From Siphonodentalium dalli (Eukaryota; Mollusca; Scaphopoda; Gadilida; Siphonodentaliidae): a stretch of 64,000 nucleotides of DNA. Made by a program: the position numbers and the translations under genes. The stretch lies in assembly GCA_032622095.1 (NCBI GenBank), contig CP136068.1, positions 116,857,509 through 116,921,508 of the forward strand, given 5' to 3'. How positions within the stretch are numbered: position 1 is the first letter of the stretch; every line of letters begins with the position of its first letter. Below the pieces are notes generated by a model. The model was given only the letters and a program-made list of their open reading frames with translations, had not been told where the DNA came from and did not search any database. This document shows, piece by piece, positions 7,845 through 53,041 of the stretch.

Positions 7845-8204
7845 CCCTGTGCCAATGCATTCTCTTATATATGCGAGTCGACCATAGGTCGCCTCCCATA
7901 TATAAGAGAATGCATTGGCCTAACAATTTTAATATTTTTTTCTTGTATTCTTTAACAATTTTATAATTTCACCCACACAGAGCCCCAGACAAACATGAGC
8001 AGACGGCACTCTTCTATAGGCTTCTATATATGTGTGGGTCTCCCTGCAGGGTAATGGATGTTTTTTTATTTTATGTCCTAAAAATTTTAAGAAACATTTA
8101 TTTAAAAAAAAATGATAAAAAATTGTTAGGCCAATGCATTCTCTTATATATGCGAGGCGACCTATGGTCGACTCGCATATATAAGAGAATGCATTGGCAC
8201 AGGG
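7845..8204 (+). mobile_element. Double-palindrome MITE module, type I
   Basis: The module is bounded by CCCTGTG and CACAGGG. Just inside each end lies a 67-bp near-perfect palindrome (7852-7918 and 8131-8197) with arms CCAATGCATTCTCTTATATA and a centre CGACC-ATA-GGTCG. The two palindromes face each other: the left has GAGTCGACC, the right GAGGCGACC. The interior includes GAGCCCCAGACAAACATGAG and an AT-rich spacer. Outside the left end, CGTAAGTCGGGATT matches part of the longer inverted end of the copies at 9690 and 11372. Confidence 0.9.
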
Positions 8205-8697
8205 TAAAAACAGATAATTACTGTGATGAGTTTCCTACCAGGACTGAATTAGACTCTAAAGAAAGTCATCAATCTGAGTAACTGATGGTTCGTAATTTAA
8301 TCGGATTCACCAGTCTCTTTACAGAATACCCATTTAATCGGCTTTGTTTCTTCCTGCGCACACTACAAAGAGTCGGTATGCTTTATGTTCGATTCCTGTT
8401 TATCTGCCTTTATGTTCCGCAATTTTAACCACTCCCGTACCGAGCGAAATTATAACCGCTAAATTCCTTTGAGATGAAGAAATGTAAACCCCACGTTTTT
8501 CGTAATCTCTGGCCTTTCTTGTAATTTCATCTGAGCTATAGAGCTGAGCTGTATCGAACAGACTTCTCAAAATCTAGGACTTATATAGGTTAAATAGCTT
8601 TTCTAAAGGTCGGGGTATTTTTCTTGCATGCCCTTTGCACACATCTATCATGAACGTGAAGGGGATTAGAATTACATGTGCTTGTGGCTATTTTAGA

Positions 8698-9395
8698 AAT
8701 GGATATTGATTTGCTTGCGTTACAATGAGTATGGATGCAAGTTGGTCTTACACTTTGTGTGGGACGCGAAAGCATTTCACTCATAAAAATGTCAGATCAA
8801 CTTGAAGACATGATCCATGGAACGTAACAAAATCAACTTACATGATTTTTTTTACCTTGTGCCAATGCATTCTCTTATATATGCGAGTCGACCATAGGTC
8901 GCCTCGCATATATAAGAGAATGCATTGGCCTAACTATTTTTTACAATTTTAATAATTTGTTCTTGTATTCTTTAACAATTTTATAATTCCACCCACACAG
9001 AGCCCCAGACAAACACGAGCAGACGACACTCTTCTTTATGCTTCTATATATGTGTGGGGCTCCCTGCAAGGTAATGGATGTTTTTTATTTTATGTCCTAA
9101 AAATTTTAAGAAACATTTATTTAAAAAAAATGATAAAAAATTGTTAGGCCAATGCATTCTCTTATATATGCGAGACGACCTATGGTCGACTCGCATATAT
9201 AAGAGAATGCATTGGCACAGGGTAAAAACTTTCAAAAGAAAAGGGGCATTTAGCGCCAGTTTTGAACGATATTCTGGTGTCACAAATAGAATCAATACAA
9301 CATGAAAACAAGTTGCGACTTGCCGAGTAAGTCACCTGACGTAATTCCAACCAACCAACGTCTTCAACGCAGGCTACACAATGCAAATGTAGGAG
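8698..9395 (+). mobile_element. Snapback element family K, interrupted (copy 1)
   Basis: The left part is a hairpin with arms ATGGATATTGATTTGC and GAGTATGGATGCAAGTTGG, closely related to 17345-17720. The right part continues from 9240 with GGCATTTAGCGCCAG and ends in CACCTGACGTAATTCCAACC. Between them sits a complete type I module (8855-9222), so family K was present before the module inserted. Confidence 0.65.
8855..9222 (+). mobile_element. Double-palindrome MITE module, type I, nested
   Basis: The palindromes are at 8862-8928 and 9149-9215, with type I interior GAGCCCCAGACAAACACGAG. The left outer end is CCTTGTG instead of CCCTGTG. It sits inside family K, giving a relative age: module younger than K. 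Confidence 0.9.
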
Positions 9396-9689
9396 TTTAA
9401 ATAGGCACATACAGGGTGAAAACCGGCTATGCAATGTCGGTTAGTTTCCATGGTTGCTATGGTATGTAAATGTACTGGTCGAAATATTGCACCAGTTTAT
9501 GTATAAGAAATGTAGGACTTCATGTAACATTGTTCAACAACAATAGGCTATATGAGTACATGCACATTGCCTGAGGATATTTACTGTGAGAGATGCGGAT
9601 TCAATTCGATATGAACGCTATATATATTCCTTTCCCTATTCTCTTGTATTCTTCCGTTGGTTTGATTGTACGCTCAACTGTTGGAAATA

Positions 9690-10145
9690 TGTGACCCGCC
9701 ATCAAATCCAGTCGTAAGTCGGGATTTATTTACCCTGTGCCAATGCATTCTCTTATATATGCGAGTCGACCATATGTCGCCTCGCATATATAAGAGAATG
9801 CATTGGCCTAACAATTTTTTACAATTTATATAATTTTTCTTGTATTCTTTAACAATTTTATAATTTCACCCATACAGAGCCCCAGACAAACATGAGCAGA
9901 CGACACTCTGCTGTATGCTTCTATATATGTGTGTGGCTCCCTGCAGGGTAATGGATGTTTTTTATTTTTATGTCCTAAAAATTTTAAGAAGCATTTATTT
10001 AAAAAAAATGATAACAAATTGTTAGGCCAATGCATTCTCTTATATATGCGAGGCGACCTATGGTCGACTCGCATATATAAGAGAATGCATTGGCACAGGG
10101 TAAAAAAATCCCGACTTACGACTGGATTTGATATGGCGGGTCACA
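9690..10145 (+). mobile_element. TA-type MITE with TGTGACCCGCC ends carrying the module
   Basis: The terminal inverted repeats are about 47 bp: TGTGACCCGCCATCAAATCC then AGTCGTAAGTCGGGATT, mirrored at the right end as GGATTTGATATGGCGGGTCA. TA dinucleotides flank both ends (9688-9689, 10146-10147), as in Tc1/mariner-type insertions. Inside are palindromes at 9740-9806 and 10027-10093 and a type I interior. Confidence 0.9.
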
Positions 10146-10239
10146 TATGACAATAACCGGCTTATTCCCAAAAAGCCGTGATATTTGTTCTGAACTGGAA
10201 ATTGTATATACTGCATTTGCGCATTGCTGATTTGTATAT

Positions 10240-10510
10240 AATATATTCATTGAGTGCAAGAATAACCAATCGGAACAATTTGGATCTTCTTTGAACGTAA
10301 ACAAACACAGGGGAAAATGTGAGATTACTCCTAATTACATGGTACAGTCTATAGGTAATTAATATAAAAGTTAGGTTATAACACGTCATTATGACCGTAA
10401 TATATCACTCTTTCAGATGAATATAGTATCCTGTATTTTTAGGAGATATAGTCGATTAATATTGACGAATAATTCCGCCTCTGGAGATGGGCATAGCGTT
10501 CGCTATAGAA
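10240..10510 (+). repeat. Left arm of large inverted repeat (partner 12180-12420)
   Basis: Reading from GATCTTCTTTGAACGTAAAC through GTGAGATTACTCCTAATTAC, CCGTAATATATCACTCTTTC and GGAGATGGGCATAGCG, the arm is the reverse complement of 12180-12420 with scattered differences. A plausible acceptor (ctctttcag at 10407-10416) lies inside it, but because the sequence is repeated I do not call an exon. Confidence 0.8.
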
Positions 10511-10752
10511 GAGAAAGAGGAGCGGTCTTCGATGTTATTCGGCATTTAGCACTACCGATATCACAAACGGGTGTATTCGAAGGAAACTTGGTGGAAAACA
10601 TCATGAGAAATACGGATTGACATAAACGAAAAAATAGGTAGTGGCCTCATTTATTCTTAGTGGTCATATAGTATATATGTTACAAAAACACTGTTATCTG
10701 CGTTCGATATGAAGTCAACAAGCCTGAGTTTAGTGTGTCTGTCATTTGCCGA

Positions 10753-11078
10753 ATGAGGTCCCCAGAGGGTAAATTTAGTGACGCTATCCCGCATAGTTGG
10801 CTAGCATCCCCAAATTCACATTCTTGGGACCTGCGTGGTGCCTCATCTGCTATGGGAGACATAGACTCAGATAGAAGTTCCCAAAGGTGAATATTGTGAT
10901 ATTGTACACCCATTGGGAACCTTGATTATGCAATGAGTCGTCTGCAAATTTCAGGATATAGAGAAACTAAACTAAAAAAAGAATAATGAGGTCCCCAGAG
11001 GGTAAATTTAGTGATGCTTCATTGTAGCCCGCTATGCCGGATAGCATAACTAAATTCACCCTCTGGGACCTTATTCTG
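10753..11078. repeat. Two related hairpins with GGTCCC ends
   Basis: ATGAGGTCCCCAGAGGGTAA begins a hairpin at 10753-10834 and again at 10986-11078. The second closes with TTCACCCTCTGGGACCTTAT. Both centres contain CCCGCATAG/CCCGCTATG-like inner palindromes. They look like two members of one small snapback family inserted about 150 bp apart. Confidence 0.7.
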
Positions 11079-11222
11079 CAAATAACAGGCGCACTAAACT
11101 CAGACTTGCCTACTAATATATATTAATTAATAATGATCTATCTCTGAGTTCAATTATGAGAATGGTGAAATACGAGACACCTATAGTGCTTTTCTGATAA
11201 GTTATTTTCCGTCATGTCACAA

Positions 11223-11303
11223 AATGTATCGAACATGATCTATTTAGATGACACATGACTCGTGTGTCTTCAAAACATATCATGTTCAATACATTTTTCA
11301 TGA
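11223..11303. repeat. Hairpin around TGTATCGAACATGAT
   Basis: TGTATCGAACATGATCTATTT faces ATATCATGTTCAATACA, and the centre GACACATGACTCGTGTGTC is a second smaller palindrome. Arm length is about 17 bp plus the inner stem. Confidence 0.65.
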
Positions 11304-11371
11304 AGATGGATTCATAGATATTATAGGAAAGAGGAAGAGGAGCGACTGCCAGCTCTGTGTTATATGCTATA

Positions 11372-11829
11372 TGTGACCCGCCATATCAAAACCAGTCGTA
11401 AGTCGGGATTTGTTTACCCTGTGCCAATGCATTCTCTTATATATGCGAGTCGACCATAGGTCGCCTCGCAATATATAAGAGAATGCATTGGCCTAACAAT
11501 TTTTTACAATTTTAATAATTTTGTTTTGTATTATTTAACAATTTTATAATTTCACCCATACAGAGCCACAGACAAACATGAGCAGACGACACTCTTCTAT
11601 ATGCTTCTATATATGTGTGGGGCTCCCTGCAGGGTATGGATGTTTTTTATTTTATGTCCTAAAAATTGTAAGAAACATTTATTTAAAAAAAATGATAAAC
11701 AATTGTTAGGCCAATGCATTCTCTTATATATGCGAGGCGACCTATGGTCGACTCGCATATATAAGAGAATGCATTGGCACAGGGTAAAAAAATCCCGACT
11801 TACGACTGGTTTTGATATGGCGGGTCACA
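11372..11829 (+). mobile_element. TA-type MITE with TGTGACCCGCC ends carrying the module (copy 2)
   Basis: Same organisation as 9690-10145. The terminal TGTGACCCGCCATATCAAAA pairs with TTTTGATATGGCGGGTCACA, TA flanks both sides (11370-11371, 11830-11831), and the palindromes lie at 11424-11491 (1-bp insertion) and 11711-11777. The two copies are about 95% alike by eye, indicating recent activity. Confidence 0.9.
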
Positions 11830-11889
11830 TATAAGATATTATATTAGGTCAACAAGGGCGAGTGTTGAATATCATTTGAGACAAATGGT

Positions 11890-12180
11890 TGCATTTTTGT
11901 CAGAATTGGAATTGGATTCAGATTGTCCGTCTTTCCCTAGATGTACTTGTCAGGTGAAAATGCAAAACATGGGAGTATCAGTTGGGACTTGTGAGGTGGG
12001 GTGGTCACATGTGACCATGTCGAAACGCGTTTAAATTGCATTTCTTAGCTGCAAAACAATTTATGTCAGTCACCCAACAAGCCAATGAACAATAATTGCT
12101 GGCTGTTTTATAATTGACGGTGTCATCCAATGAACCTGCATCGGATGTTCTGCATCCCATGGGTGTGTTTTATATGGCGG
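11890..12180 (+). repeat. Inverted repeat arm (partners 13340-13500 and 14280-14410)
   Basis: GATGTACTTGTCAGGTGAAA and GACTTGTGAGGTGGGGTGG are mirrored at 14310-14400. AATTGCTGGCTGTTTT through TTCTGCATCCCATGGGTGTG is mirrored at 13360-13455 (AACACACCCGTGGAATGCAG). The partner arm is therefore split by SINE B, a family Q fragment and a local duplication. Confidence 0.7.
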
Positions 12181-12420
12181 ACGCTATGCCCATCTCCAGT
12201 GGCGGGAGTATTCGTCAATATTAATCGGCTCTATCTACTAAAAAATACAGGATACTATATTGATCGGAAAGAGTGATATATTACGGTCATAATGACGTAT
12301 TAAAATCTAACTTTTATATTAAATTACCTATAGACTATGGTATGTAATTAGGAGTAATCTCACATTTCCCTCTGTTGGTTTACGTTTAAAGAAGATCCAA
12401 AGTGTTCCGATTGATTGATA
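12180..12420 (-). repeat. Right arm of large inverted repeat (partner 10240-10510)
   Basis: This is the reverse complement of 10240-10510, ending near GAAGATCCAAAGTGTTCCGA. About 1.7 kb separates the arms; the interval contains a complete MITE (11372-11829) and two hairpins. Confidence 0.8.
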
Positions 12421-13339
12421 TTCAGAATGAAAAAAATATACATCATATGGAAGCGACACATGTGTGTTTCTGTGCAGCCTATAATACGGTTATTTACCAC
12501 GCTATGTTCTGAGATAAACAGGCCCTCTATGTTTAAAACTGCAGAGAAAACAGTTTGTTCTGTGGCAAATTCGCTCTTCAGTCCCCTAGACTCACTCATT
12601 CTATGTGTCACGGAACTGTTCTCTGACCTCAAACCCACCCCCGTGTGACAAGTTAGGTTATTAGGTATAGTAATAGTAATCATAGTAATGGCTTTCGTTT
12701 ATAAATTTCCATATATTTGTTTGAAGGAGCCAACCCATAATTTCTGTATCAGCTATAGAGGTGGGAGTGTCCCAATGGGGCTACGGACACATATCTCAGT
12801 GCAATTGGGCTACATCAAGTGTAGCAATATTAACATTTTTTTTTAGAGGAATACAAGCTTGGACAAAATTATGCACGATGCGAAACATTTCTAAGTTAAA
12901 AAAAGGGGGATAACTCCACTTTAAAAAAAAAGTCGGACGGACGGTTTCTATGGTACTAAATGGCTGTGCCAATAAAACAAATTACTGAAATATGTAGCAG
13001 TAAAATATCGGACAAACGAACGTCCACAGACCCCATGTAGCAGATACACTTGTGTGAACACATACCTGCGAGCTGCAGACAATCCATTGTGGGTTTCATC
13101 GCCCCTGTCCAGGACGTAATGGGGTGCAGGCAAAATTTAGTGGGTGCGAGATATTAAAAGTCAATAAATCAACAAATATTGAGATATTTTTTTAAACGTG
13201 GTAAATGCCTATTATCAGTTTGGGCCTAGTGATGTTAATCCATAATCTGAGACGAAACTATGGTTACACAAACTTCTGAAGTGGTGTTGTCAAATATAGT
13301 GCACCCCACAAGTCGACGTTTTATTGATTGGTCAAATGG

Positions 13340-13500
13340 TGTCACATGTTATATATATTTAGAAAACACACCCGTGGAATGCAGAACATGCAATACATTT
13401 CATTAGATGGTACCGGCGATTCGAAAACAGCCAGCAATTGTTGTTCTATTACTTGTTGAGACGTGACATAAATTGTTCTTCAACTCAGAAATGCATATTT
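13340..13500 (-). repeat. Split right arm, inner part
   Basis: AACACACCCGTGGAATGCAG and GAAAACAGCCAGCAATTGTT are the reverse complement of 12060-12180. Similarity stops where the 72-bp duplication begins. Confidence 0.7.
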
Positions 13501-13647
13501 CCCAGAAAGAGGCATTGAAGTCGTGAAAAATACAACTTTGAATACTGTGTTAGGATCCCAGACAATAAATAGCCAGAAAGAGGCATTGAAGTCGTGAAAA
13601 ATACAACTTTGAATACGGTGTTAGGATCCCAGACAATAAATAGCCAT
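13500..13647 (+). repeat. Two-copy tandem duplication, 72-bp unit
   Basis: The unit starts AGAAAGAGGCATTGAAGTCG and ends CCCAGACAATAAATAGCC; it occurs twice in succession with one difference (TGTGTT versus CGGTGTT). The near identity indicates a recent event. Confidence 0.9.
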
Positions 13648-13664
13648 TGTGACAGAAAAGAGCG

Positions 13665-14078
13665 TTCCGTGTTATAATAATAATGTATATCATTTATATA
13701 GCGCTTAATCCCTGGTGTAGCTCTAAGCGCTCACATTATTACCCCAGCTGTATTTTATGAGTAATGCCGAGTCTTGTGCCTGCTGCCATTTTAGAGGGGC
13801 TTCACTAGAGCGGCTTACGGATACCCAACAACCAGGTCCCTATTTCTCGTCTAGGTACGACGAAGCGAGCACAGTACAAGTGACCTTGCCCAAGGGTCAC
13901 AACCTGGCGCGAGATTTGAAACAGCGTGTGGCTATATAGTATATATAGCACACACACCGCTTAATCCGGCCAAGCCACTGTTGTGGAGACGATAGTCCAC
14001 CGACCGGGCGCGAACTCATGCCGGTGCGTTGACACCATTACAAGTCCGACACTCTAACCACTGGACTACCACTTCCAC
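13665..14078 (-). mobile_element. tRNA-derived composite SINE, family B
   Basis: On the minus strand the 5' end at about 14078 reads GGAAGTGGTAGTCCAGTGGT, with the A-box region in TAGTCCAGTGG. An anticodon-loop-like CTTGTAA and a B-box-like GAGTTCGCGCCC follow, so the head resembles tRNA-Thr(TGT). The body contains TGTGACCCTTGGGCAAGG, a CTTCGTCGTACC stretch, GGGGTAATAATGTGAGCGCT and GCGCTATATAAATG, ending in a TTATTATTAT tail. This order is typical of metazoan SINEs with a conserved central domain. The last claim is from family knowledge, not a search. Confidence 0.8.
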
Positions 14079-14094
14079 GTTAATCTATTCCCGA

Positions 14095-14300
14095 TATGGA
14101 AGAAATAGAGAGCGTTAATTTCACTTCAGTGCGAAACGTTGAAAACAGCTGGAAAATGGCTGTGACCATGGCAAGTATTTCTCAGATCATGTGAAGCTGG
14201 CATACGAATATTTCGTGTATTTATATCAACAAATATTATACTACTTCCAAATTACGTATAGACAAAATTTGAAAGCTCGAATGAGCCGTGTCCTTTTAAA
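14095..14300 (-). repeat. Dispersed repeat, family Q (copy 2)
   Basis: Reverse complement of 4675-4870: GAAAACAGCTGGAAAATGG, TCTCAGATCATGTGA, CTTCCAAATTACGTA and GCTCGAATGAGCCGTGTCC match in order. It abuts the 5' end of SINE family B, so the SINE probably inserted next to or within it. Confidence 0.7.
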
Positions 14301-14410
14301 CGAGTTTCAACATAGTCACAAGTGACCATCCCACCTCACAAGTCCAACTGATACTCCAAATTTTGCGTTTTCACCTGACAAGTACATCTATATGGGGGAA
14401 ACGGATGGAC
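14280..14410 (-). repeat. Split right arm, outer part
   Basis: CACAAGTGACCATCCCACCT through TTTTCACCTGACAAGTACAT is the reverse complement of 11930-12020. It ends with the GGACGGACAAACGG phrase, which has a shorter counterpart near 11920. Confidence 0.7.
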
Positions 14411-15054
14411 GGACAAACGGAAAAGCTGATTGCAATATACCGCCATAACTTCGGTACCGGAGCCGAGTGTATAAACATCTGCAATGCGTATAGTCTTATG
14501 AGACAATCTGAGCTAGGCTGCCAAAAATGTACCTATAGCGGAGTTGTCATGTATTTGAAGGTACATTTTGTCTGGACAACTCTTGTAATAATAGCGAAGC
14601 CAGTTTCGCAATATTTTGTTGCATTGTGTGGTGAGTACGGAGATAATTAAAACACAAAAATAACACAATAAAACAATACTAATTAAATAAATAATTAAAA
14701 TAAAGTAAAATAAAACTGATTGTGGCAGCAAAACCAGAAAGCTCAAACTAATTTTGCGCCGATCGATGAATAGCACATCTATGGATCGTATATTCGTAGA
14801 GTACCACTTGCGTCTTTATAAGGAAGTATTACGTGTTGCAACGTAAAAAGCGCGTAGGTTGGTTCTGATTCATTGTCCGCGATCTGGTTGTAAAATACAC
14901 ACAGTTCTCGATGGATATGTGCGTTTCTATTCCCTTTTATTGATTTAGATACCGTGGAACCACGCTCTTGCTACTATACATTTCGCCATTTGAAATGGCA
15001 GCTGTCAAGGTTTGGTAAAACCTTGTGATTTTTCCTGACTAGATTAATCACTGA

Positions 15055-15200
15055 TCTGATGTCGACGGTTATTCCGTGGGCGATAGCTGTTCTGAGATAT
15101 ACACTGACAAGTCACCGACAGTGTGAAATATAGCCTGTACGAATGTATACTGTGGTTTGCCCAATCGCCCCGCTTTCTCGGTTACTCGGAGTCTCAGCCA
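15055..15200 (+). repeat. Direct repeat (partner 16515-16660)
   Basis: GTTCTGAGATATACACTGAC and GTGTGAAATATAGCCTG recur at 16545-16600 as GTTCTAAGATGTACACTGAC and GTGTGAAATATATCCTG, followed in both by a C-rich stretch and CTCGGTTRCTC. The pair flanks the palindromic minisatellite and a foldback, so the copies may be remains of one element's ends or of a tandem duplication. Confidence 0.65.
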
Positions 15201-15218
15201 TACACTCTTAAAACAATA

Positions 15219-24305: not shown

Positions 24306-24645
24306 TATCTTCGGTCTGTCTCAATAGAACCATACAAATATGGATATCATTGGAACCGGCTCCTTGACCACATTGTGATAGTTACAGTTATGCCCTGTGC
24401 CAATGCATTCTCTTATATATGCGAGTCGACCATAGGTCGCCTCGCATATATAAGAGAATGCATTGGCCTAAAAACAATCTTTTTTTAACACCTTTTACCA
24501 TTTTTTCTTATATTCTTTAACAATTTTATAATTTTTAATGTGTTAAGCCAATGCATTCTCTTATATATGCGAGGCGACCTATGGTCGACTCGCATATATA
24601 AGATAATGCATTGGTACAGGGCCGTTCTGTTGGGTAAAGGGTTAA
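24306..24645 (+). mobile_element. Left-truncated piggyBac-like MITE with module, type II
   Basis: The right end is TTGGGTAAAGGG then TTAA. The left terminus CCCTTTACCC and the GGCC-rich start seen at 52584 are missing; similarity begins at ATATCTTCGGTCTGTCTCAA. It carries palindromes at 24400-24466 and 24548-24614, separated by a short type II spacer with TATTCTTTAACAATTTTATAA. Confidence 0.85.
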
Positions 24646-27979: not shown

Positions 27980-28200
27980 ATTACCCTGCAGGGAGCCCCA
28001 CACATATATAGAAGCATATAGAAGAGTGTCGTCTGCTCATGTTTGTCTGGGGCTCTGTATGGGTGAAATTATAAAATTGTTAAAAGAATACAAGAAAAAA
28101 TTTCTAAAATTGTAAAAAATTGTTAGGCCAATGCATTCTCTAATATATGCGAGGCGACCTATGGTCGACTCGCATATATAAGAGAATGCATTGGCATAGG
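27980..28200 (-). mobile_element. Truncated type I double-palindrome module
   Basis: Relative to 7845-8204 this copy is inverted and keeps the interior (GAGCCCCACACATATATAG, CTCATGTTTGTCTGGGGCTC) and one palindrome (28128-28194). The other palindrome is gone; the sequence starts at CATTACCCTGCAGGG. Confidence 0.8.
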
Positions 28201-29957: not shown

Positions 29958-30348
29958 CCCTTTACCCAACAGAAGGGCCCTGTGCCAATGCATTCTCTTA
30001 TATATGCGAGTCGACCATAGGTCGCCTCGCATATATAAGAGAATGCATTGGCTTAACACATTAAAAATTATAAAATTGTTAAAGAATGTAAGAAAAAATG
30101 GTAAAAAGTGTTAAAAAAAGATTTTTTTTAGGCCAATGCATTCTCTTATATATGCGAGGCGACCTATGGTCGACTCGCATATATAAGAGAATGCATTGGC
30201 ACAGGGCTAACTGTAACTATCACAATGTGGTCAAGGAGTCGGTTCCAATGATATCCATATTTGTATGGTTCTATTGAGACAGACCGAAGATATTTTAGGC
30301 TGTTGAAGCTTTATTTGGCCGGTTTTGGCCGGTTTGTTGGGTAAAGGG
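29958..30348 (-). mobile_element. piggyBac-like MITE with module, type II, TTAA-flanked
   Basis: The ends CCCTTTACCCAACA and TGTTGGGTAAAGGG are flanked by TTAA at 29954-29957 and 30349-30352. It is inverted relative to 52584-53041. Palindromes lie at 29985-30051 and 30133-30199. TTAA target sites with CCC-starting ends are the hallmark of piggyBac elements; no transposase is encoded. Confidence 0.9.
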
Positions 30349-31602: not shown

Positions 31603-32028
31603 CCCTTTCAGTGCCAGGTCCGATTTGTGTATCAACCCATATACCCTGTGCCAATGCATTCTCTTATATATGCGAGTCGACCATATGTCGCCTCGCATAT
31701 ATAAGAGAATGCATTGGCCTAACAATGTTTCATCATTTGTTATTATGTTTTACAATTTTTTACAATTTTAATAATTGTTTCTTATATTCTTTAACTGACT
31801 TATTTTGTAGGTTTAGTGCCAGGGAATCTTACGTTTTTCATGGGCATCAAAATTATTACTATGAATACTTGGTGATAGTTTTGAGTTATAACAAGATCCT
31901 AAGGTTTTATCCAGTTTAAAAAAAAATTCGCTATAGCATGCTTAAGCATACCCAAAACAATTTTTTTAGGGCCGATTTTACAGACCGTAAATTAGGGCGG
32001 ATGAGATCGGCCCCTGGCACTGAAAGGG
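31603..32028 (+). mobile_element. piggyBac-like MITE (CCCTTTCAGTGCC ends) with one palindrome
   Basis: The ends are CCCTTTCAGTGCCAGG and CCTGGCACTGAAAGGG. TTAA precedes the left end; the right flank has mutated to TTAG. The first 40 bp match the module-free element at 34273-34479, after which a module begins (palindrome 31651-31717, then an AT-rich spacer). The second palindrome is absent, replaced by other sequence. Confidence 0.85.
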
Positions 32029-34272: not shown

Positions 34273-34479
34273 CCCTTTCAGTGCCAAGTCCGATTTTTGT
34301 ATCAACCCATATTTCCTTGATCATTTTTTTCAAATTTATTGATTATAATAATGTGATACATTGATGGAAAGAGCTAAGAGCTCTTTCCATCAATGTATCA
34401 CATTATTATAATCAATAAATTTGAAAAATGATCAAGGAAATATGGGTTGATACAAAAATCGGACTTGGCACTGAAAGGG
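34273..34479. mobile_element. Near-perfect palindromic piggyBac-like MITE with CTAT flanks
   Basis: The arms of about 100 bp run from CCCTTTCAGTGCCAAGTCCG to a centre GAAAGAGCTAAGAGCTCTTTC and are nearly identical. The flanks are CTAT on both sides (34269-34272 and 34480-34483), where the related element at 31603 has TTAA/TTAG. It lacks the double-palindrome module. Confidence 0.85.
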
Positions 34480-37630: not shown

Positions 37631-37957
37631 TCACATTGTGATGGTTACAGTTATGCCCTGTGCCAATCCATTCTCTTATATATGCGAGTCGACCATAGGT
37701 AGCCTCGCATATATAAGAGAATGCATTGACCTAAAAAAAAAAAAAATTTACCATTTTTTCCTTACATTCTTTAACAATTTTATAATTTTTTCTGACATTT
37801 TTTAACAATTTTTATAATATTTTTCTACATTCTTTGACAATTTTATCATTTTCAATATGTGTTAAGCCAATGCATTCTCTTATATATGCGAGGCGACCTA
37901 TGGTCGACTCGCATATATAAGAGAATGCATTGGCACAGGGCCGTTTTGTTGGGTAAA
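37631..37957 (+). mobile_element. Left-truncated piggyBac-like MITE with module, type II
   Basis: It starts within the family at ACATTGTGATGGTTACAG and ends TTGGGTAAAGGG before TTAA. The palindromes are at 37663-37729 (the left one with changes in both outer ends) and 37867-37933. The spacer contains three diverged copies of a 33-40-bp AT-rich unit (TACATTCTTTAACAATTTTA). GTCTGTTCYTTCGATC occurs on both sides (37618 and 37977). Confidence 0.85.
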
Positions 37958-37969
37958 GGGTTAAGGCAA

Positions 37970-39830: not shown

Positions 39831-39910
39831 AATCAGAAATGGTGTTAGTTAAGGGATGGATAATAATCAACATGTTAGTGGCAGTATTATCCAAACCTCA
39901 ATATACGACC

Positions 39911-42110
39911 AGGAATCACAGCGATTCACCACGGGTCACCACGAACACTCTAAATATACACAACATGGAATCACAGCGACTCACCATGGGTCACCACGAA
40001 CACTCTACTAAATATACACAACATGGAATCACAGCGACTCACCATGGGTCACCACGAACCCTCTAAATATATATAGCACATGGAATCACAGCGACTCACC
40101 ATGGGTTTCAGCGAGCCCTCTAAATATATACAACATGGAATCACAGCGACTCACCATGGGTCACCGCGAACCCTCTAAATATATATAGAACATGGAATCA
40201 CAGCGACTCAACGTGTGTCACCGCAAGCCCTCTAAATGTATATACAACATGGAATCACAGCGACTCACTATCGGTCACCGCGAACCCTCTAAATATATAT
40301 AGAACATGGAATCACAGCGACTCACCATGGGTCACTGCGAACCCTCAAAATATATATAGCACATGGAATCACAGCGACTCACCATGGGTTTCAGCGAGCC
40401 CTCTAAATATATACAACATGGAATCACAGCGACTCACCATGGGTCACCGCGAACCCTCTAAATATATATATAACATGGAATCACAGCGACTCACCATGGG
40501 TCACCGCGAACCCTCTAAATATATATAGAACATGGAATCACAGCGACTCACCATGGGTCACTACGAACCCTCTAAATATATACAACATGGAATCACAGCG
40601 ATTCACCACGGGTCACTGCGAACCCTCAAAATATATATAGCACATGGAATCACAGCGACTCACCATGGGTTTCAGCGAGCCCTCTAAATATATACAACAT
40701 GGAATCACAGCGACTCACCATGGGTCACCGCGAACCCTCTAAATATATATAGAACATGGAATCACAGCGACTCAACGTGGGTCACCGCAAGCCCTCTAAA
40801 TGTATATACAACATGGAATCACAGCGACTCACTATCGGTCACCGCGAACCCTCTAAATATATATAGAACATGGAATCACAGCGACTCACCATGGGTCACC
40901 GCGAACCATCTAAATATATACAACATGGAATCACAGCGACTCACCATGGGTCACCGCGAACCCTCTAAATATATATAGAACATGGAATCACAGCGGCTCA
41001 CCATGGGTCACCGCGAACCCTCTAAATATATATAGCACATGGAATCACAGCGACTCACCATGGGTTTCAGCGAGCCCTCTAAATATATACAACATGGAAT
41101 CACAGCGACTCACCATGGGTCACCGCGAACCCTCTAAATATATATAGAACATGGAATCACAGCGACTCAACGTGGGTCACCGCAAGCCCTCTAAATATAT
41201 ATATAACATGGAATCACAGCGACTCACCATGGGTCACCGCGAACCCTCTAAATATATACAACATGGAATCACAGCGACTCACCATGGGTCACCGCGAACC
41301 CTCTAAATATATATAGAACATGGAATCACAGCGACTCAACGTGGGTCACCGCAAGCCCTCTAAATGTATATACAACATGGAATCACAGCGACTCACCATC
41401 GGTCACCGCGAACCCTCTAAATATATATAGAACATGGAATCACAGCGACTCACCATGGGTCACCGCGAACCCTCTAAATATATATAGAACATGGAATCAA
41501 AGCGACTCAACGTGGGTCACCGCAAGCCCTCTAAATATATATATAACATGGAATCACAGCGACTCACCATGGGTTTCAGCGAGCCCTCTAAATATATAAC
41601 ATGGAATCACAGCGACTCACCATGGGTCACCGCGAACCCTCTAAATATATATAGAACATGGAATCACAGCGACTCAACGTGGGTCACCGCAAGCCCTCTA
41701 AATATATACAACATGGAATCACAGCGACTCACCATGGGTTTCAGCGAGCCCTCTAAATATATAACATGGAATCACAGCGACTCACCATGGGTCACCGCGA
41801 ACCCTCTAAATATATATAGAATATGGAATCATAGCGACTCAACGTGGGTCACCGCGAGCCCTCTAAATATATATATAACATGGAATCACAGCGACTCACC
41901 ATGGGTCACCGCGAACCCTCCACATATACAACGCGGAATCACAGCGACTCAACGTGGGTCACCGCGAACCCTCTAAATATATAGAACATGGAATCACATC
42001 GACTCAACGTGGGTCACCGCGATCCCTCCACATATACAACATGGAATCACAGCGACTCATGCACCATGGGTCACCGCGAACCCTCTACATATACAACGAG
42101 AATCACATTG
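39911..42110. repeat. Satellite, 56-57-bp unit, roughly 38-40 copies
   Basis: The unit is ACATGGAATCACAGCGACTC then ACCATGGGTCACCGCGAACC, CTCT and a variable AAATATATATAG linker. Three sequence classes alternate: the common one, one with GGGTTTCAGCGAGCC, and one with CAACGTGGGTCACCGCAAGC. Between 41168 and 41840 the third class recurs every 165-170 bp, a three-unit higher-order repeat. Since 57 is divisible by 3, long ORFs arise by chance. Confidence 0.95.
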
Positions 42111-43805: not shown

Positions 43806-44093
43806 TATAATTTGTTTCTTACATTCTTTAACAATTTATATATTTTTTTTACTTATATTCTTTAACAATTTTTATATTTTGTTTCATTATTTCTGACATT
43901 CTTTAACAATTTTTTATAATTAAAAATAAAAAATTCTTACATTTTTTAACAATTATAAAAAATAATATAAAATATGTTAGGCCAATGCATTCTCTTACAT
44001 ATGCGAGGCGACCTATGGTCGACTCGCATAGATATGATAATACATTGGCACAGGGTTTTCGCAAACATCCAGTAAGCTCCCGTCATGAAAGGG
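43800..44093 (-). mobile_element. piggyBac-like MITE (CCCTTTCATGA end) with one palindrome
   Basis: The right end is TCATGAAAGGG followed by TTCA (decayed TTAA). The palindrome lies at 43982-44048, with changes in the right arm, next to CACAGGGTTTTCGCAAAC. The spacer holds four diverged units with TTCTTTAACAATTTTTATA. The same end occurs inverted at 62488. Confidence 0.75.
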
Positions 44094-45528: not shown

Positions 45529-46088
45529 TACTCAAATGTTGTTGTTGGTTTCTATAGTCTCTAAGTCGTAGAATAAGGTAACCAGACTGCCATTAATTGA
45601 AAGTCTGTTGAGTACGAAGTAATGTTATGGATGGCAGATTAGCCGGTATGCGAAAATACAAATTGTCGTTGTCGAATAATTTGTGCATAGTTTCCAAGCA
45701 AATGTATAAAATAAGTGTTATATTATATGCATGCTATTCCCATAATACTTATTTATGTTATTGTTTAGTCACTAGTCAGTGAGTGGCTTGGGTTTACGCC
45801 CCGTGTCGACATATATTTTTACACGATCATGTGTGCCACGCGTTGTCCAATCCACTATCCTTTAATTAATTTGATTACATCATGTACTCGGAAATTCGTA
45901 ATTTAATTTATGGCTCCAGCCATAAATTAAATATATTTCAAATTATTAACCTTGATTTTAAGATAACCTATTAACCTGAACGCTTACAGAATACATCTTC
46001 GACTCAAATTACTTATTGTTCTATATATTATCGATATTAGATCGTTGTTATTACCGGGAGTTTATTGGAAATGACGTACAGTACCACT
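45529..46088. mobile_element. TTAA-flanked MITE, family C (copy 2)
   Basis: AGGGATACTGTACTC to GTACAGTACCACT is flanked by TTAA at 45525-45528 and 46089-46092. The right third matches copy 1 while the left interior is largely different, so either copy may be a composite. Confidence 0.75.
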
Positions 46089-46194
46089 TTAAGAACGGTG
46101 TGTAAACGTTCAAAAAGTCAAAATATCACCGATAGCATCATCAGTTAATAGCCCGGTGGCGATTCATCTAAGCGAATAACCACCGCTTTTCGGC

Positions 46195-46285
46195 AATTAC
46201 GAAGGTGAAGCTACAGACATCTTGAACTGAAGGCAACGTCGATAAATCGTAACCCGCATGGTGATGAATGCGACTTCGATCAATT
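46195..46285 (+). repeat. Direct repeat, about 90 bp (partner 44565-44655)
   Basis: Second copy of the block. A minus-strand and a plus-strand ORF overlap it but neither has domain support. Confidence 0.8.
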
Positions 46286-46680
46286 CATCACAGACGTACT
46301 GCGGTAAATGCCTGCGGTTTCTTGAGTTGTTTTTCGGTTCATCTAACCAGACGCGAGGTTTAGCAATCCACAATGCCATATATGTGGCAGCCAATCAATC
46401 AGATATCGATGACGTCAGCTATGCACAATGCTATTCCATTCTATGACCTGCTGATAGCTTCTCAGTCTCGGGTGTTTTCATATCTTCAATATCTTCGTTC
46501 CTTTGCACTTCAAATCATTGATAGCATTGAATGTATTTAGTAATCTGCTGAGATGTGTTTTTTACCTCAATATGTTGTGGTCTATAGGTAATAAATTTAC
46601 CATGTATTATTGGACCATGTATGTGATAATCTCACCGATCTACAGTGAAGACAGAAACTAAATCAGGGACAAACAAAATA

Positions 46681-46706
46681 GAGAGAAAGCGAGAGAGAGA
46701 GAGAGA

Positions 46707-46749
<43 letters not shown>
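46681..46749 (+). repeat. (GA)n microsatellite
   Basis: About 69 bp of GA repeats with two interruptions (AAGC, GGG). Confidence 0.95.
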
Positions 46750-46751
<2 letters not shown>

Positions 46752-46799
46752 GGATGGGGAGAAAATAAGAGAGAATTAAAGACGAATCACAGTCAGATT

Positions 46800-48735
46800 C
46801 TATATTGCAAGAGTGGACACTTTATTTACTATTTAAAAACAAAATACGACGCCCTGATGTAAACATTGCACGCCCTGCTACAGTTCAAACCAGGCGGTGT
46901 ATTTTCGATTTCACCAGAAAAAGTGCCTTGTTTCCGCAAATTCGCGTCTTTTACACATGTCATTTTGATAACTCATTGGTGGTCTTGTCTCTGGCGTTGA
47001 TAAAGCGGTCTATCTCAGATTAACCTGTTCTATCTAGAGCCAAGTCACACGCGTCGGATGTCAGGCACAAATATGGACGTTTTGATGGATATAAGATATT
47101 TTAACATCTGAAATGTACTAAATTGCAGTGCTTTTCGTTTTTATTTTTAAACCATCTTTTCCAAAAATACAAGTATTTGCAAATCAGATGATACGATTTA
47201 GTAGTTGTCGCAGTACTTTTATATTACATGAATAAAAAGATAAATGTTTTGCCGAAATTCTCTCGGAATTCTTGCCTTGATCTGCTTCAAGCAAATCGTG
47301 CAAACAAACATCCAATATCAGACTCAAAATCAAGCTCCCGTATAAACGCCACTCATCGATATATCCAATTGACTCTCGGTGTATCGTATGGGAATAGAAC
47401 GAATAGGCACGACGCTATTCAATTATATCGCCGATACGGTACTCTATCCATGAACGGAGTGCCGTAATATCGCTGGATAAATGATAGCACTAAATATGGC
47501 CCATAACCATCCGTCTCGAGGGTTGGTCGATAGACTGTAGAGCTTCTCTTATAGACGATGCTTTCGGAATCTTACACAATTCGTGGGCGCGATTAAACGT
47601 CATGCTGTGACCCATGAGTGGGGAAATTTGTGCCAACAAAATGAGTAATATCATCTATTTTCAACCCTGAAATTAATTTTCTTGTTGTTAGAGTGAAAAG
47701 TAACTTGATAGTCTGCCTTATTGAGCGCATCGCGATTCTAAGATAATGACGATTGTGATATCGCGGAATTGATTGCCACGACATTTGCGGTATAATACAT
47801 GATATGCACACACACATGCAATAAATCATGCTGATAGGTCTCCTCGCTCGAGGAAAATATCAGTAAAGCATTTAAACTTTAGAATAATGCTATCTTGAAA
47901 TTCACATCCGAACAAAGTGTTTAAAATGTCCATGGTGCATGGTAGTTTGGAATATATTACTGCGATTTGACAGCATAAAACTGCAATTATTACGTGTATA
48001 AACTTTGTCTATCGCAAAATACAATGTGTGAAATGTATCTAACCGTTAAGAGAATACACATTTGAAACGCGGGACTGTAACGTGCCACTATATAACAGTG
48101 TGTTTTACATGGTACTTTTGAAGATACCAATCCAGTTGGACACAGCGAATGCACTATTTGTGCATTACCACATCATCCACAATGGCATAGAACTTATGAC
48201 CTCATAAATGTGAGTTTTTGATGGTCAGATATCGACGTTAAAATCAGGCCTCAAGCCAAAACATCGTCTTTGGAAAATAAATACAAAAAAACACAAACAG
48301 TTAAGAAAATCAACTGCAGTAAATGCAACGTTGAATTTTTCATTAGAGATTTTTCAATCTGAGACTGTGAGTTTATGCCGATTCAAGCGCAAATTATTTT
48401 CTCAGTAAAATTAGCATGCACGATGATTGTCGCACCAGTAAAACTGAAAGCGCCGTGATATGGTCTGTAGAGCGATTGAAAAATATATATATACCCCCAA
48501 CTAATCAAACGTTTATTGCTACGGTTCTGTACTGTCTAATGTGTCATCTGCGAATCTTTAACATATTCCCCAAGGAGTGCCGAGTTCGGTAAAGAAACAG
48601 TTATCTGATAAACGCGATCTTGAAATCCATCATTGGAGATTTTTCAAATTGAGTCTTAAATTCACACAATGAATATCCCGCTCCCCGGTCACGTTGGTGT
48701 GATGAAGCGTAAGTTCAGTATAACCAATCCTGTCT
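46800..48735. other. Mostly unique-looking sequence, nothing assigned
   Basis: Short ORFs at 46805, 47228 and 47593 lack domain or splice evidence. This is one of the longest stretches in the window without a recognised repeat, so it could hide regulatory or diverged coding sequence. Confidence 0.4.
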
Positions 48736-48744
48736 CCGTGATTG

Positions 48745-51210
48745 ATCTCCACAGTTGTTTATTCGCCCGACAGGCTAATAACTGAAATCGGCACTGATAC
48801 GTCCAACCTATGGGCATTCAGTTATACACCGTACAACGTCTGGACACCATCGGTCATCCATTTTCCCGACGCTTGTATTCCGTCGTGTTCTGGTGGCACC
48901 CTCCCATCCCCAATATGTCTGTATTAGTACATGCGCTGTTGGATGACGTAGCTAGACAGAATCATCGTCGTCATATTTTATTGCGGTCATCGTCGTGATC
49001 ACAATTATCAAGACGACGGTGATAGCGGTAATAGTGACGACGACAATGCTCATCATAAAAATGATGGTGACAATGGATGTCAATGCTACATGTAAAATGG
49101 TTTTCTCAAAAGCAAGTAGAAACAATTGAGAGCCGTACCTTAAAACTTTTTCTGGAGTTTCAAACGAAGCTGCGTGCTTCGAAATATGTAATGTTGTTTA
49201 AAAATACAATTCCAACCAAAGGCGACCATCAAATTACCGGCAATTGAACAACTGGCATTAGCTGATGAACATAATGATTGCATGGCAGGTCTTTGTCTGG
49301 CATAATTAATAACCAGCCATAACTACTCTATACTTCAGTCTGTTGATTGATCGCCCATAGTTGTGTATTCGCCCGACAGGCTAATAAGTTAAATTGACAC
49401 CGATACGTTGAACCTATGTACATTGATGTAGGACGTACGACGTCTGCACACCATCGGTCATCAATTATTCGGAACCTTGTATTCCGTCGTGTTATGGTGG
49501 CACCCTCCCACCCCCAAATGTGTTTACTAGTCCATGCACTGTTGGATGATGTAGCTAGACAGAATCGTCATCGTTATCAATACTATCTAGTCGACGACGG
49601 TGATGGCGGTCTTGGTGACGACGACGATGATCATCATGGAAATGATGGTGACAATGGATGTCAAAGCTACACGTAAAATGGTATTCTCAAAAGCAAGTTG
49701 AAACAATTAAGAGCCGTACATTAAAACTTGATCTGGAGTTTCAAACGAAGTTGCGTCCTTCGAAATATGGCATGCTGTTTCAAAAACCAAATCCAGCCAA
49801 AGGCAACCATCAAATTGCCCGCAAACTGGCATTAGCTGATGAACATGTGGCAGGTGACATGTCTGGCATAATTAACAACCATCCATAAAAATCCTATACA
49901 TCAGTCAGTTGATTGATCGCCAATAGTTGTTTATTCGCCCGACAGGCTAATAAGTGAAATCGACACATATACGTTGAACCTATGTAAATTGATTTATGAC
50001 GTACGGCGTCTGGACACCATCGGTCATCAATTTTACGGAACCTTGTATTCCGTCGTGTTCCGGTGGCACCCTCGCATCCCCAAAATTTGTTTACTAGTCC
50101 ATGCACTGTTGGATGATGTAGCTAGATAGAATCGTCGTCGTTATCAATACTATCTAGGCGACGACGGTGATGGCGGTCTCGGTGACGACGACGATGATCA
50201 TCATGAAAATGATGGTGACAATGGATGTCAAAGCTACACGTAAAATGGTATTCTCAAAAGCAAGTTGAAACAATTGAGAGCCGTACATTAAAACTTGATC
50301 TGGAGTTTCAAACGAAGTTGCGTCCTTCGAAATATGGCATGTTGTTTCAAAAACAAATTCCAGCCAAAGGCAACCATCAAATTGCCCGCAATTGAACAAC
50401 TGGCATTAGCTGATGAACATGTGGCAGGTGACATGTCTGGCATAATTAACAACCATCCATACAAATCCTATACATCAGTCAGTTGATTGATCGCCAATAG
50501 TTGTTTATTCGCCCGACAGGCTAATAAGTGAAATTGACACCGATACGTTGAAACTATGTAAATTGATTTATGACGTAACGTCAGGACACCATCGGTCATC
50601 AATTTTTCGGAACCTTGTATTCCGTCGTGTTCTGGTGGCACCCTCCCATCCCCAAAATTTGTTTACTAGTCCATGCACTGTTGGATGATGTAGCTAGATA
50701 GAATCGTCGTCGTTATCAATACTATCTAGGCGACGACGGTGATGGCGGTCTTGGTGACGACGACGACGATCATCAAGAAAATGATGGTGACAATGGATGT
50801 CAAAGCTACACGTAAAATGGTTTTCTCAAAAGCAAGTTGAAACAATTGAGAGCCGTACATTAAAACTTGATCTGGAATTTCAAACGAAGTTGCGTGCATT
50901 GAAATATGGCATGTTGTTTCAAAAACCATTCCAGCCAAAGGCAACCATCAAAGTGCCCGCAATGGAACAACTGGCATTAGCTGATGAACATGTGGCAGGT
51001 GACATGTCTGGCATAATTAACAACCATCCATACATCAGTCAGTTGATTGATTGTCCATTGTTGTGTATTCGCCCGACAGGCTAATAAGTGAAATCGACAC
51101 CGATACGTTGAACCTATGTACATTGATTTGTGACGTACGACGTCTGGACACCATCGGTCATAAATTTTTCGGAATCGTGTATCCGTCGCGTTCTGGCGGC
51201 ACACTCACAG
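48745..51210. repeat. Tandem array of four and a part units, 560-606 bp each
   Basis: The anchor GCCCGACAGGCTAATA occurs at 48765, 49371, 49937, 50511 and 51071, giving periods of 606, 566, 574 and 560 bp. Each unit includes GACACCATCGGTCATC, TTCCGTCGTGTT, a (GAC/GAT)-rich stretch, ATGGTGACAATGGATGTCAA, and a block from AGCCGTACATTAAAACTTGA to GGCAACCATCAAA. In units three and four the minus strand keeps a 72-81-residue ORF, but its hydrophobic end is encoded by the GAC/GAT microsatellite. Units two to four are the most alike. Confidence 0.9.
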
Positions 51211-51324
51211 TCCCGTGACGCCTGACGCATGAAGATCACTATAGACGGGCCTCATTGTTATCAGGCAACAATCCAATTATTGAAAACTCCCCACCACTGT
51301 CATCATTTCACGACTTCATCTGTT

Positions 51325-51410
51325 CCCCTCCTGTATTTTAGTTTCTCATCCCACTATCTCCCTCTCCCTCTCTCTCTTTCTCTATCTCTCTCTCTGTCTC
51401 CTGCTATCCA
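51325..51410 (+). repeat. (CT)-rich tract
   Basis: A pyrimidine-rich stretch of CTCCCTCTCCCTCTCTC type immediately to the right of the 560-606-bp array. Confidence 0.8.
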
Positions 51411-51719
51411 TAATACTATCTTCTCCCTTTTTTCCATCCCTAACTCATCCAAATTCAGTTATATATCTCCATTTCACTTAAAACCATTATTTCCAACCAT
51501 TCCCATCTGATATGTACCCCTCACTTATTGGGGACGGGGCATGTTGCCAAAGAGGAGAAGACTTCATATATACGTCCTCGGGCTTGTTGTCTGATCCTCG
51601 TTTCCATACATTAACTCTTCTATTCTGCATATATGTGTCATCACTATATATTATGTTATTTGTTTGGATTGAGGAAATAAAAATATGTTTACACTAAATG
51701 TTTACACTAATCCCGTGAT

Positions 51720-51880
51720 TTCCTTAAACATTTCTGTACGAAATACTCATTGACGAGTAGTTGCCATAGGAAATTTCAGATAATAAGTTAAACAAATGGC
51801 CATTGAACATTTTACACCAATGACCCTGAATAAGTATGCTCTTATATTATCCTTTTCTCTCTCTGTCGTCTGCTGTTATT
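51720..51880 (+). repeat. Dispersed repeat, family T fragment
   Basis: CATTGACGAGTAGTTGCCATAGG, AACATTTTACACCAATGACC and CTCTGTCGTCTGCTGTTATTA match the family in order. The ends are decayed. Confidence 0.5.
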
Positions 51881-52583
51881 ATGATTGCTTTATTGCGAAG
51901 AAACAAATTAATGAGTAACATGCAATAACACATATGCAATATTTTATATACAATATGTACACAATGGAAATGAGACCCCTCCCTACAAACGTGTTGTTTG
52001 TTTGTTTATTTTTTTCGTGTTCCTTATTTTCTTTTAAAAATCGTGTGTGTATATAAGTTATATTCCTCTTATGTTTTCAATGTCCGTTTGACTATCAGTT
52101 TGAATTTGTGACCATGCGATGAGCTAATTCAGCTGCCTTCCACAAGGTATACAATTAATTGCAATTAAGAGACTTCTCTAAAGGCAATTTTTAGAAAAAT
52201 AGAGAGTTGTTTCAAACGAGAGATATTTTCTATTGACAAGAAGGGCGCGAAGGGTTTTCCCAGTAATATTTTGGGATATAGCGCTCACGTAGACATTTTT
52301 ATTTGTCACAGACGAGTACAAAATGATACTCGTCTCCGATTGTGTCAGATTTACATCTATCGCACATCTTACTCTGTTTTATGCCATCGCGCTTTTTCGA
52401 TTGGTAATCTATGGTTTGATGTTCTGATTTTCACTAATGATGCTGTCAGGTGTTTATGGAGATATAACACATATCGGCATATTACTTGCATGCATCTTCC
52501 AGATGAATAATATTCCATTCCAATGTATACTTATTATAATTGAGGAGAGTCTCCATTTAGTATAGAAAGTTCACATATATTAA

Positions 52584-53041
52584 CCCTTTACCCAACAAAC
52601 CGGCCAAAAACGGCCAAATAAAGCTGCAACAGCCTAAATTATCTTGGGTCTGTCTCAATAAAACCATACAAATATGGATATCATTGGAACCGGCTCATTG
52701 ACCACATGGTGATGGTTATAGTTATGCCCTGTGACAATGCATTCTCTTATATATGCGAGTCCATAGGTCGCCTCGCATATATAAGAGAATGCATTGGCCT
52801 AAACAAATCTTTTTTTTAACACTTTTAACCATTTGTTCTTACATTCTTTAACAATTTTATAATTTTTTCTTACATATTTTAACAATTTTTATAATATTTT
52901 TCTACATTCTTTGACAATTTTATCATTTTTAATATCATTGTGTTAAGCCAATGCATTCTCTTATATATGCGAGGCGACCTATGGTCGACTCGCATATATA
53001 AGAGAATGCATTGGCACAGGGCAGTTATGTTGGGTAAAGGG
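52584..53041 (+). mobile_element. piggyBac-like MITE with module, type II, complete
   Basis: The ends CCCTTTACCCAACA and TGTTGGGTAAAGGG are flanked by TTAA (52580-52583, 53042-53045). From the left come a GGCCAAAAACGGCC palindrome, GTCTGTCTCAATAAAACC, CATACAAATATGGATATC and ATGGTTATAGTTATGCCCTG, then palindromes at 52734-52797 (partly deleted centre) and 52948-53014 with a three-unit AT-rich spacer. This is the best reference copy for the family; 24306, 29958 and 37631 are relatives. Confidence 0.9.

What the first reader, a model, noticed from the sequence alone, without database searches (positions are those of the whole stretch)
7845..53041. One double-palindrome module inside several unrelated MITE families
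A module of two inverted 67-bp palindromes (arms CCAATGCATTCTCTTATATA, ends CCCTGTG/CACAGGG) occurs about 11 times. Its hosts differ: TA-flanked elements with TGTGACCCGCC ends (9690, 11372); TTAA-flanked with CCCTTTACCC ends (29958, 52584); TTAA-type with CCCTTTCAGTGCC ends (31603); TTAA-type with CCCTTTCATGA ends (43800, 62488). One module spread across transposons with different target rules is unusual. It may itself be a mobile unit that parasitises MITEs, or a captured cassette.
Basis: partly seen in the sequence, partly recalled or inferred. Interest (0 to 1): 0.85.

Follow-up and report, generated by a model that had tools for sequence, protein, structure and literature searches.

The report
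Palindrome cassette shared by unrelated MITEs
A short DNA cassette built from two hairpin-forming palindromes is the shared core of four families of tiny jumping genes with different ends, which have multiplied it to a very high copy number in this 2.2-billion-base genome; one similar case is known from corals.

Summary
The window holds 12 module sites: 8 with two inverted 67-bp palindromes, 4 with one or a remnant. The border+arm 33-mer has 124,021 exact copies in the genome (reversed control 0). Four host types carry it: A (GTGACCCGCC ends, 4-bp AWWT duplication), B, C and D (TTAA, CCCTTTM/CCCTTTSA ends, otherwise different). Sequence is shared up to one border, CCCTGTG, and essentially stops there. 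C also exists empty; no empty A or B was found in the loci read.

D is the likely donor: only D carries an older palindrome version (26 of 32 D ends; 0 of 224 A, B, C ends, 4 unclear), as well as the newer one. Best reading: a D core was captured by founders of A, B and C, and each founder then amplified. An independent parasite is not shown: 0 of 261 sampled module ends adjoin TTAA (40 could not by choice). However, in 5 of 60 selected loci CCCTGTG is itself a terminus, with TTAA outside both ends, so this edge can act as a transposon end. Palindromes diverge less than the rest and partly change in step on both arms. Closest known case: coral CMITEs.

The parts
9690..10145 (+). Host A MITE, complete; module 9733-10100, palindromes 9740-9806 and 10027-10093
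11372..11829 (+). Host A MITE, complete; module 11417-11784
7845..8204 (+). Double module of A type; only part of the left A end kept, right side breaks off in the A-run
8855..9222 (+). Double module of A type without A ends; both sides break off in the T/A-run; no flanking direct repeat of 8 bp or more
24393..24621 (+). Double module in host B (right end 24632-24641)
28128..28194 (+). Single palindrome with A-type interior on its left
29958..30348 (-). Host B MITE; module 29978-30206; orientation opposite to the copy at 52584
31603..32028 (+). Host C MITE with one palindrome (31651-31717); border CAACCCATATA|CCCTGTG at 31644
34273..34479 (+). Empty relative of host C: same outer sequence up to CAACCCATAT, then TTCCTTGATC, no module
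37656..37940 (+). Double module in host B (right end 37951-37960)
43982..44093 (+). Right part of a host D copy: one palindrome, CACAGGG, D end TCATGAAAGGG; AT-rich 32-bp-type repeats to its left
52584..53041 (+). Host B MITE; module 52727-53021
62488..62567 (+). Left end of a decayed host D copy with a damaged palindrome

Best explanation
The module is the core of an old TTAA-type MITE family (D). Shown: among the ends read, D carries an older and a newer palindrome version while A, B and C carry only the newer one; the shared sequence runs to the same 7-bp border CCCTGTG and essentially no further. Inferred: a newer D core was captured by founder copies of three other MITE families, one with a different target class (A, AWWT) and two with TTAA (B, C). 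Each founder then multiplied by its own ends, which explains the copy number without transposition of the module as such. The border coincides with a sequence that can serve as a TTAA-class terminus (seen in five elements), so capture probably began with nested insertion or switching of ends (inferred). The palindromes keep their symmetry by arm-to-arm correction or by selection for a hairpin (inferred; not distinguished).
For: Common border in all hosts. Position-by-position identity of the 30 bases outside the border 0.13-0.40 for all 15 host-end pairs. Palindrome version at outer ends in all loci read by then: A 113 new, 0 old, 1 unclear; B 98 new, 0 old, 3 unclear; C 9 new, 0 old; D 4 new, 26 old, 2 unclear. 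Many of those loci had been picked by the newer arm; in the window and loci picked by host ends alone: A 28 new, 0 old; B 32 new, 0 old; C 3 new, 0 old; D 1 new, 8 old, 1 unclear; further D copies with the newer centre but a damaged arm are. Host C empty in 11 of 12 fetched loci, which were picked for lack of a listed exact module or for closely spaced ends; 11,338 of 24,631 exact C outer 19-mers run directly into the module. TTAA on both sides: B 31 of 38, C 10 of 19, D 7 of 13 rows, 5 of these 13 from the one locus L004; A 4-bp duplication 25 of 34. In the loci read A copies share one junction and B copies one pair, as expected for one founder each. CCCTGTG as a terminus with TTAA outside both ends: L141, L157, L171, L174, L196. 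Paired changes: 21 cells against 9.3 in shuffles, 0 of 500 reach it. Palindromes less diverged than other parts in copies not chosen by palindrome, CpG and homopolymers left out: B 6/1179 against 61/1849, p 4e-8; A 10/944 against 31/1254 in the interior, p 0.016.
Against: No empty A or B was found (20 of 20 A-end loci, several of them duplicates of each other, and 11 of 11 B-end loci carry module sequence; the strict empty-B pattern gave 4 matches and all 4 keep module remnants), so capture by A and B is inferred from C and from the junctions. Outside the border five of the 14 pairs other than D1/D2 are marginal: B-right/D1 4, A/C 6, C/D2 11, C/D1 12, B-right/D2 19 of 200 shuffles; four of the five are between TTAA hosts, which share CCCTTT. 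The number of pairs with changes on both sides is not above shuffles (5 against 4.4; 230 of 500 reach it), nor is the number of pair types (20 against 19.1; 184 of 500), so the covariation rests on few events. The A divergence test has 8 rows with two near-identical pairs. Several junctions at one border are more exact than plain template switching would predict.
Confidence: 0.68

Rival explanations
1. The module is a mobile unit of its own: a TTAA-type element with CCCTGTG/CACAGGG ends that inserts into other MITEs.
For: Same border in A, B, C and D; the border starts with CCCT as TTAA elements do; five elements have CCCTGTG directly at a TTAA site with a proper host end and TTAA on the far side; four of them (L157, L171, L174, L196) finish with the same D end, as if one founder had moved repeatedly.
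Against: 0 of 261 sampled module ends adjoin TTAA, including 0 of 101 in the set chosen by the 33-mer alone; only 341 exact TTAA+border words against 124,021 border+arm words, and of 60 of these fetched 39 sit in ordinary host flanks by the automatic class, plus L155 by eye; in the loci read no element had CCCTGTG at both ends and TTAA outside both; no target duplication around the module inside A, B or C.
Confidence: 0.15
2. The four hosts are diverged forms of one ancestral element; the module is the inherited core and the ends decayed or were replaced gradually.
For: B, C and D share TTAA and CCCTTT; marginal local similarity outside the border for B-right/D1 (4 of 200 shuffles), A/C (6), C/D2 (11), C/D1 (12), B-right/D2 (19).
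Against: C outer sequence exists in copies without the module; A has another target duplication and other ends; the 40 best-scored A copies are 95-97% alike over the element (best candidates only), whereas outer sequences of different hosts are at most marginally alike.
Confidence: 0.1
3. The palindromes are kept because a protein or a hairpin-dependent step needs them (a transposition enhancer shared by families), so the core spread by selection among elements.
For: Lower divergence of palindromes, paired changes, strong hairpin; the coral paper suggests a role of its conserved core in transposition (PMC2872659).
Against: Arm-to-arm correction gives the same pattern; host C is abundant also without the module. 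No Rfam family reaches its threshold in the window, which says little here.
Confidence: 0.3

Closest known systems
CMITEs of the corals Acropora millepora and A. palmata (Wang et al. 2010, PMC2872659)
   Same: One internal region (about 75 bp) conserved across six MITE families with different ends, TTAA duplications, CCCTTT-type ends in most, tandem arrays, a new element built by insertion of one into another
   Different: There all families are TTAA type, about 1,600 copies in A. millepora, origin of the core unknown. Here two target classes, 124,021 exact border+arm words, a double palindrome, a likely donor family. The coral core sequence is in a figure, so homology could not be tested.
MER6 with the V domain of V-SINEs (Luchetti et al. 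2019, PMC6887750)
   Same: A conserved domain from another transposon class found inside, and amplified with, a DNA transposon (abstract and section 2.4)
   Different: Source is a SINE and the carrier a Tc1/Mariner-type MITE; no double palindrome is mentioned in the parts read
Modular pearl-type MITEs and satellite junctions of bivalves (PMC5139131)
   Same: Modular elements with internal repeats; one satellite whose junctions map within palindromes (passages only)
   Different: The passages concern satellites and Helitron-related elements, not a double-palindrome core in families with different target rules

Membership tests
MITE (hosts A-D) | Short, inverted ends, target duplication, high copy number | tested here: met
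   Elements of 141-873 bp within the length ranges searched, inverted ends, duplications; copy numbers of end words
MITE (hosts A-D) | Non-coding | not tested
   Coding capacity was not examined element by element; lengths make a transposase impossible
TTAA / piggyBac-like MITE (hosts B, C, D) | TTAA duplication and CC[C/T]T terminal motif | tested here: met
   TTAA both sides in B 31/38, C 10/19, D 7/13 rows; ends CCCTTT; motif as given in PMC2872659
TTAA / piggyBac-like MITE (hosts B, C, D) | Related autonomous element with piggyBac transposase and the same ends | not tested
   No transposase search was run; other TTAA superfamilies (Kolobok) not excluded
TTAA / piggyBac-like MITE (host A) | TTAA duplication | tested here: not met
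   ATAT, ATTT or AAAT repeated in 25 of 34, TTAA in none of 34
Coral CMITE group | Homologous 75-bp internal region | not testable with these tools
   Sequence is only in a figure of PMC2872659
Coral CMITE group | Core more conserved between families than the ends | tested here: met
Independent transposon (the module) | Constant ends with a target duplication in unrelated DNA | tested here: inconclusive
   Not met in A, B, C; one-ended use of CCCTGTG at TTAA in 5 of 60 loci selected for TTAA

The most novel reading that the evidence does not exclude
The cassette is bounded by latent but working transposon ends (CCCTGTG) and is a semi-autonomous parasite of MITEs: it moves rarely with a TTAA-class transposase, enters other MITE families even of another target class, and lets their ends multiply it, so that a hairpin core outlives any one set of ends.
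Probability: 0.2. Interest if true: 0.75.

Novelty: new variant of a known kind. Interest (0 to 1): 0.5.

Why it matters
MITEs are usually sorted by their ends, on the idea that the interior is filler. Here the interior is the lasting part and the ends differ, across two target-site classes and at very high copy number. With a likely donor and an empty host in one genome, the question how MITE cores are acquired, left open for corals, becomes testable. Classifiers that cluster by interior would wrongly merge these families.

Tried and rejected
Free-standing copies: window 7845 and 8855, L019, L034, L101, L108, L113, L115, L116, L119 and others looked like independent insertions. They are A-type pieces that break off at or near T/A-runs on one or both sides. 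Of 16 truncated copies tested for flanking direct repeats (L116 not among them), 13 had none of 8 bp or more, L158 had 16 bp, L148 11 bp and L144 8 bp (L144 is within chance: 15 of 240 mismatched pairs reach 8-10 bp, none 11) (L019 had been cut in the wrong orientation there and was repeated with the same answer, none). The cut points were set by hand, roughly in L139. Best read as fragments of A moved by repair, a few perhaps with a target duplication.

Other hosts: 20 loci chosen by C or T before the border fell in A (complete or truncated), B or D. A strict empty-A word pair gave 0 hits, which says little because both arms had to be exact.

A first divergence table was biased because many copies had been picked by their palindrome; only (8 A and 10 B rows) is used. 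An automatic far-end test counted 9 hits; 4 of them (L155, L184, L190, L195) are chance words in A-type copies, which leaves 5 after reading the sequences. For one search I used 22 of 51 distinct 67-bp palindromes (all 15 of the old type, 7 of 36 of the new); 8 of the 107 palindromes found there were not 67 long and were dropped. Ungapped inside-border identity is lowered by single-base indels in window copies and is not used.

Rfam: no family at its threshold in the window. Paper searches: (one search was an input error); three papers came. The host-end and palindrome words were in no paper on transposons; one search listed two polyomavirus papers that share one 12-letter word, seen only in the listing. 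The taxon of the genome was not determined.
Full report
Setting. The window lies in a 2.23-Gb genome of 9 contigs held as G000, contig C8. The taxon is not named and was not worked out.

Observation. Of 12 module sites in the window, 8 are double; 28128, 31644, 43982 and 62544 have one palindrome or a remnant. The border+arm 33-mer has 62,118 forward and 61,903 reverse exact copies, the reversed control none. The palindrome is a strong hairpin.

Hosts. I fetched 40 stretches around places from the first 6 Mb of contig C1 listed (not random over the genome) and read the sequence outside each palindrome. Four settings recur. A: GTGACCCGCCATATCAAATCCAGTCGTAAGTCGGGATTTTTTTTA before the border on both sides. 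B: a left part ending GTTACAGTTATG and a right end TTAACCCTTTACCCAACAGAACGG. C: CCCTTTCAGTGCCAGGTCCGATTTTTGTATCAACCCATATA before a single palindrome, with another right part. D: CCCTTTCATGAC ends, with two variants of the sequence between the end and the border. Of 261 module ends in the window and loci L001-L140, 97 were classed A, 103 B, 12 C, 27 D and 22 none; the loci were chosen in different ways, so these are not genome proportions. Most of the 22 are A-type copies broken off in the T-run; the others look like damaged or inner ends.

Target duplications. B, C and D have TTAA on both sides in 31 of 38, 10 of 19 and 7 of 13 rows; 5 of the 13 D rows come from one locus, L004. So the module sits in elements of two target classes.

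The border. Comparing 40 bases outside the border, the two D ends are alike (0 of 200 shuffles); B-right/D1 (4 of 200), A/C (6), C/D2 (11), C/D1 (12) and B-right/D2 (19) are marginal, four of these five pairs being TTAA hosts that share CCCTTT; the other 9 pairs are not above shuffles. Inside, the palindrome is the same in the A and B majority and in C copies. The interiors between palindromes are related but vary: an AT-rich unit of about 32 bp (TTCTTACATTCTTTAACAATTTTATAATT and variants), once to several times in A, B and C and in long arrays in some D copies.

Empty hosts. C exists without the module: in 11 of 12 fetched C loci the outer sequence runs to CAACCCATAT and then to TTCCTTGATC or close variants. 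These loci had been picked because no exact module was listed beside them or because two ends lay close together, and two (L069, L070) have the same flanks; window 34273-34479 is another. Genome-wide, 11,338 of 24,631 exact C words run directly into the module. For A, 20 of 20 loci picked by the end word carry module sequence, several being duplicates of one another; for B, 11 of 11. A strict empty-B pattern gave 4 matches: two keep one CCCTGTG, one an arm piece with CACAGGG and one a piece of the palindrome centre, so they look like deletions rather than empty sites.

Donor. D copies have two palindrome versions. The older has the centre CTCCCATAGGGAG and often CCAGTG/CACTGG at the base, with a spacer of about 28-30 bp between the palindromes; the newer equals that in A, B and C. 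By outer end: A 113 new, 0 old, 1 unclear; B 98, 0, 3; C 9, 0, 0; D 4 new, 26 old, 2 unclear; no host recognised, 22 new and 2 old. Many loci had been picked by the newer arm, which favours 'new'. In the window and loci picked by host ends alone the picture is the same with smaller numbers: A 28 new, 0 old; B 32, 0; C 3, 0; D 1 new, 8 old, 1 unclear, and several further D copies with the newer centre have a damaged arm. The newer version and the AT-rich interior are therefore nested in D's diversity, which makes D the likely source. D ends also form satellite arrays with a unit of about 37 bp.

The edge as a terminus. If the module moved by itself at TTAA, TTAA should adjoin its border. It does in 0 of 261 sampled ends, of which 40 could not because of how they were chosen; in the set chosen by the 33-mer alone it is 0 of 101. 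Genome-wide there are 341 exact TTAA+border words. I fetched 60 of the 100 listed. By the script, 39 lie in A, B, C or D flanks and 21 in unrelated DNA (one of these, L155, is an A copy by eye). Reading the rest, five are elements that start with CCCTGTG at TTAA and finish with a B end (L141) or a D end (L157, L171 with one changed letter, L174, L196) followed by TTAA. So this edge can serve as a transposon end, at least on one side. I saw no element with CCCTGTG at both ends and TTAA outside both. L194 is a tandem array of a piece of the module.

Palindrome upkeep. In 22 distinct palindromes (15 old, 7 new), 92.5% of paired cells form standard pairs against 89.8% in shuffles, and 21 cells change on both sides against 9.3 (0 of 500 shuffles reach either); but the number of pairs with such a change, 5, and of pair types, 20, is ordinary, so few events are behind it. 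In copies not chosen by their palindrome, palindromes have fewer mismatches than the rest (B 0.5% against 3.3%; A 1.1% against 2.5% in the interior). Subfamily differences in B's outer part inflate the contrast. Arm-to-arm correction and selection for a hairpin are not separated by these data.

How it most likely works. Shown: common core, four sets of ends, two target classes, common border, D diversity, latent end. Inferred: capture of a D core by one founder each of A, B and C, probably through nested insertion or end switching at the latent terminus, then amplification by the new ends. Simple template switching during repair would give scattered borders. Homology-driven exchange cannot easily start in unrelated outer sequence.

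What is known. Coral CMITEs are the same kind of thing: a conserved core shared by six families with different ends (PMC2872659: abstract, Results part 1 of 2, sections 12 and 13, and Discussion read). They are all of TTAA type and the core's origin was left open. This case adds a second target class, a very large copy number, a likely donor and an empty host. In the searches listed under Tried and rejected I found no report of these sequences or of a double-palindrome core in such different MITEs; the library holds open papers only.

Noticed in passing
L078 (C1:3257300-3258500) and L084 (C1:8060800-8061700); by spacing alone also C1:3257437-3273395, 4325741-4329315, 4907345-4924003: Satellite arrays with a unit of about 37 bp (TTAACCCTTTCATGACGGGAGCTG...GGTGCAGCA) that equals the left end of host D, running from TTAA to TTAA.
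   Followed up: partly
L031, L043, L051; middle of window A elements (about 9868-9960): A further short element with ends like CCCAYAGAGAGCCCC and GGCTCCCTGTGGG beside TTAA; a similar, diverged core sits in the middle of the A module.
   Followed up: partly
G000 C1:735735-779435 (about 14.6 kb), 820017-920855 (about 11.2 kb), 94237018-94292256 (about 7.9 kb): Evenly spaced module copies, which point to large tandem arrays carrying B and C elements.
   Followed up: no
L194: Tandem array of a short piece of the module border and arm next to a D end: a satellite arising from the module.
   Followed up: no
window 39901-42093 and 351-1004: Large tandem arrays with periods 57/169 and 30/119 bp, not related to the module by eye.
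   Followed up: no
L158: A fragment of A's module flanked by a 16-bp direct repeat, as after insertion by a LINE-type or repair process.
   Followed up: partly
window 10752-10785 and 10985-11018; L054, L059, L097: Another dispersed repeat (AATGAGGTCCCCAGAGGGT...) seen near several module loci.
   Followed up: no
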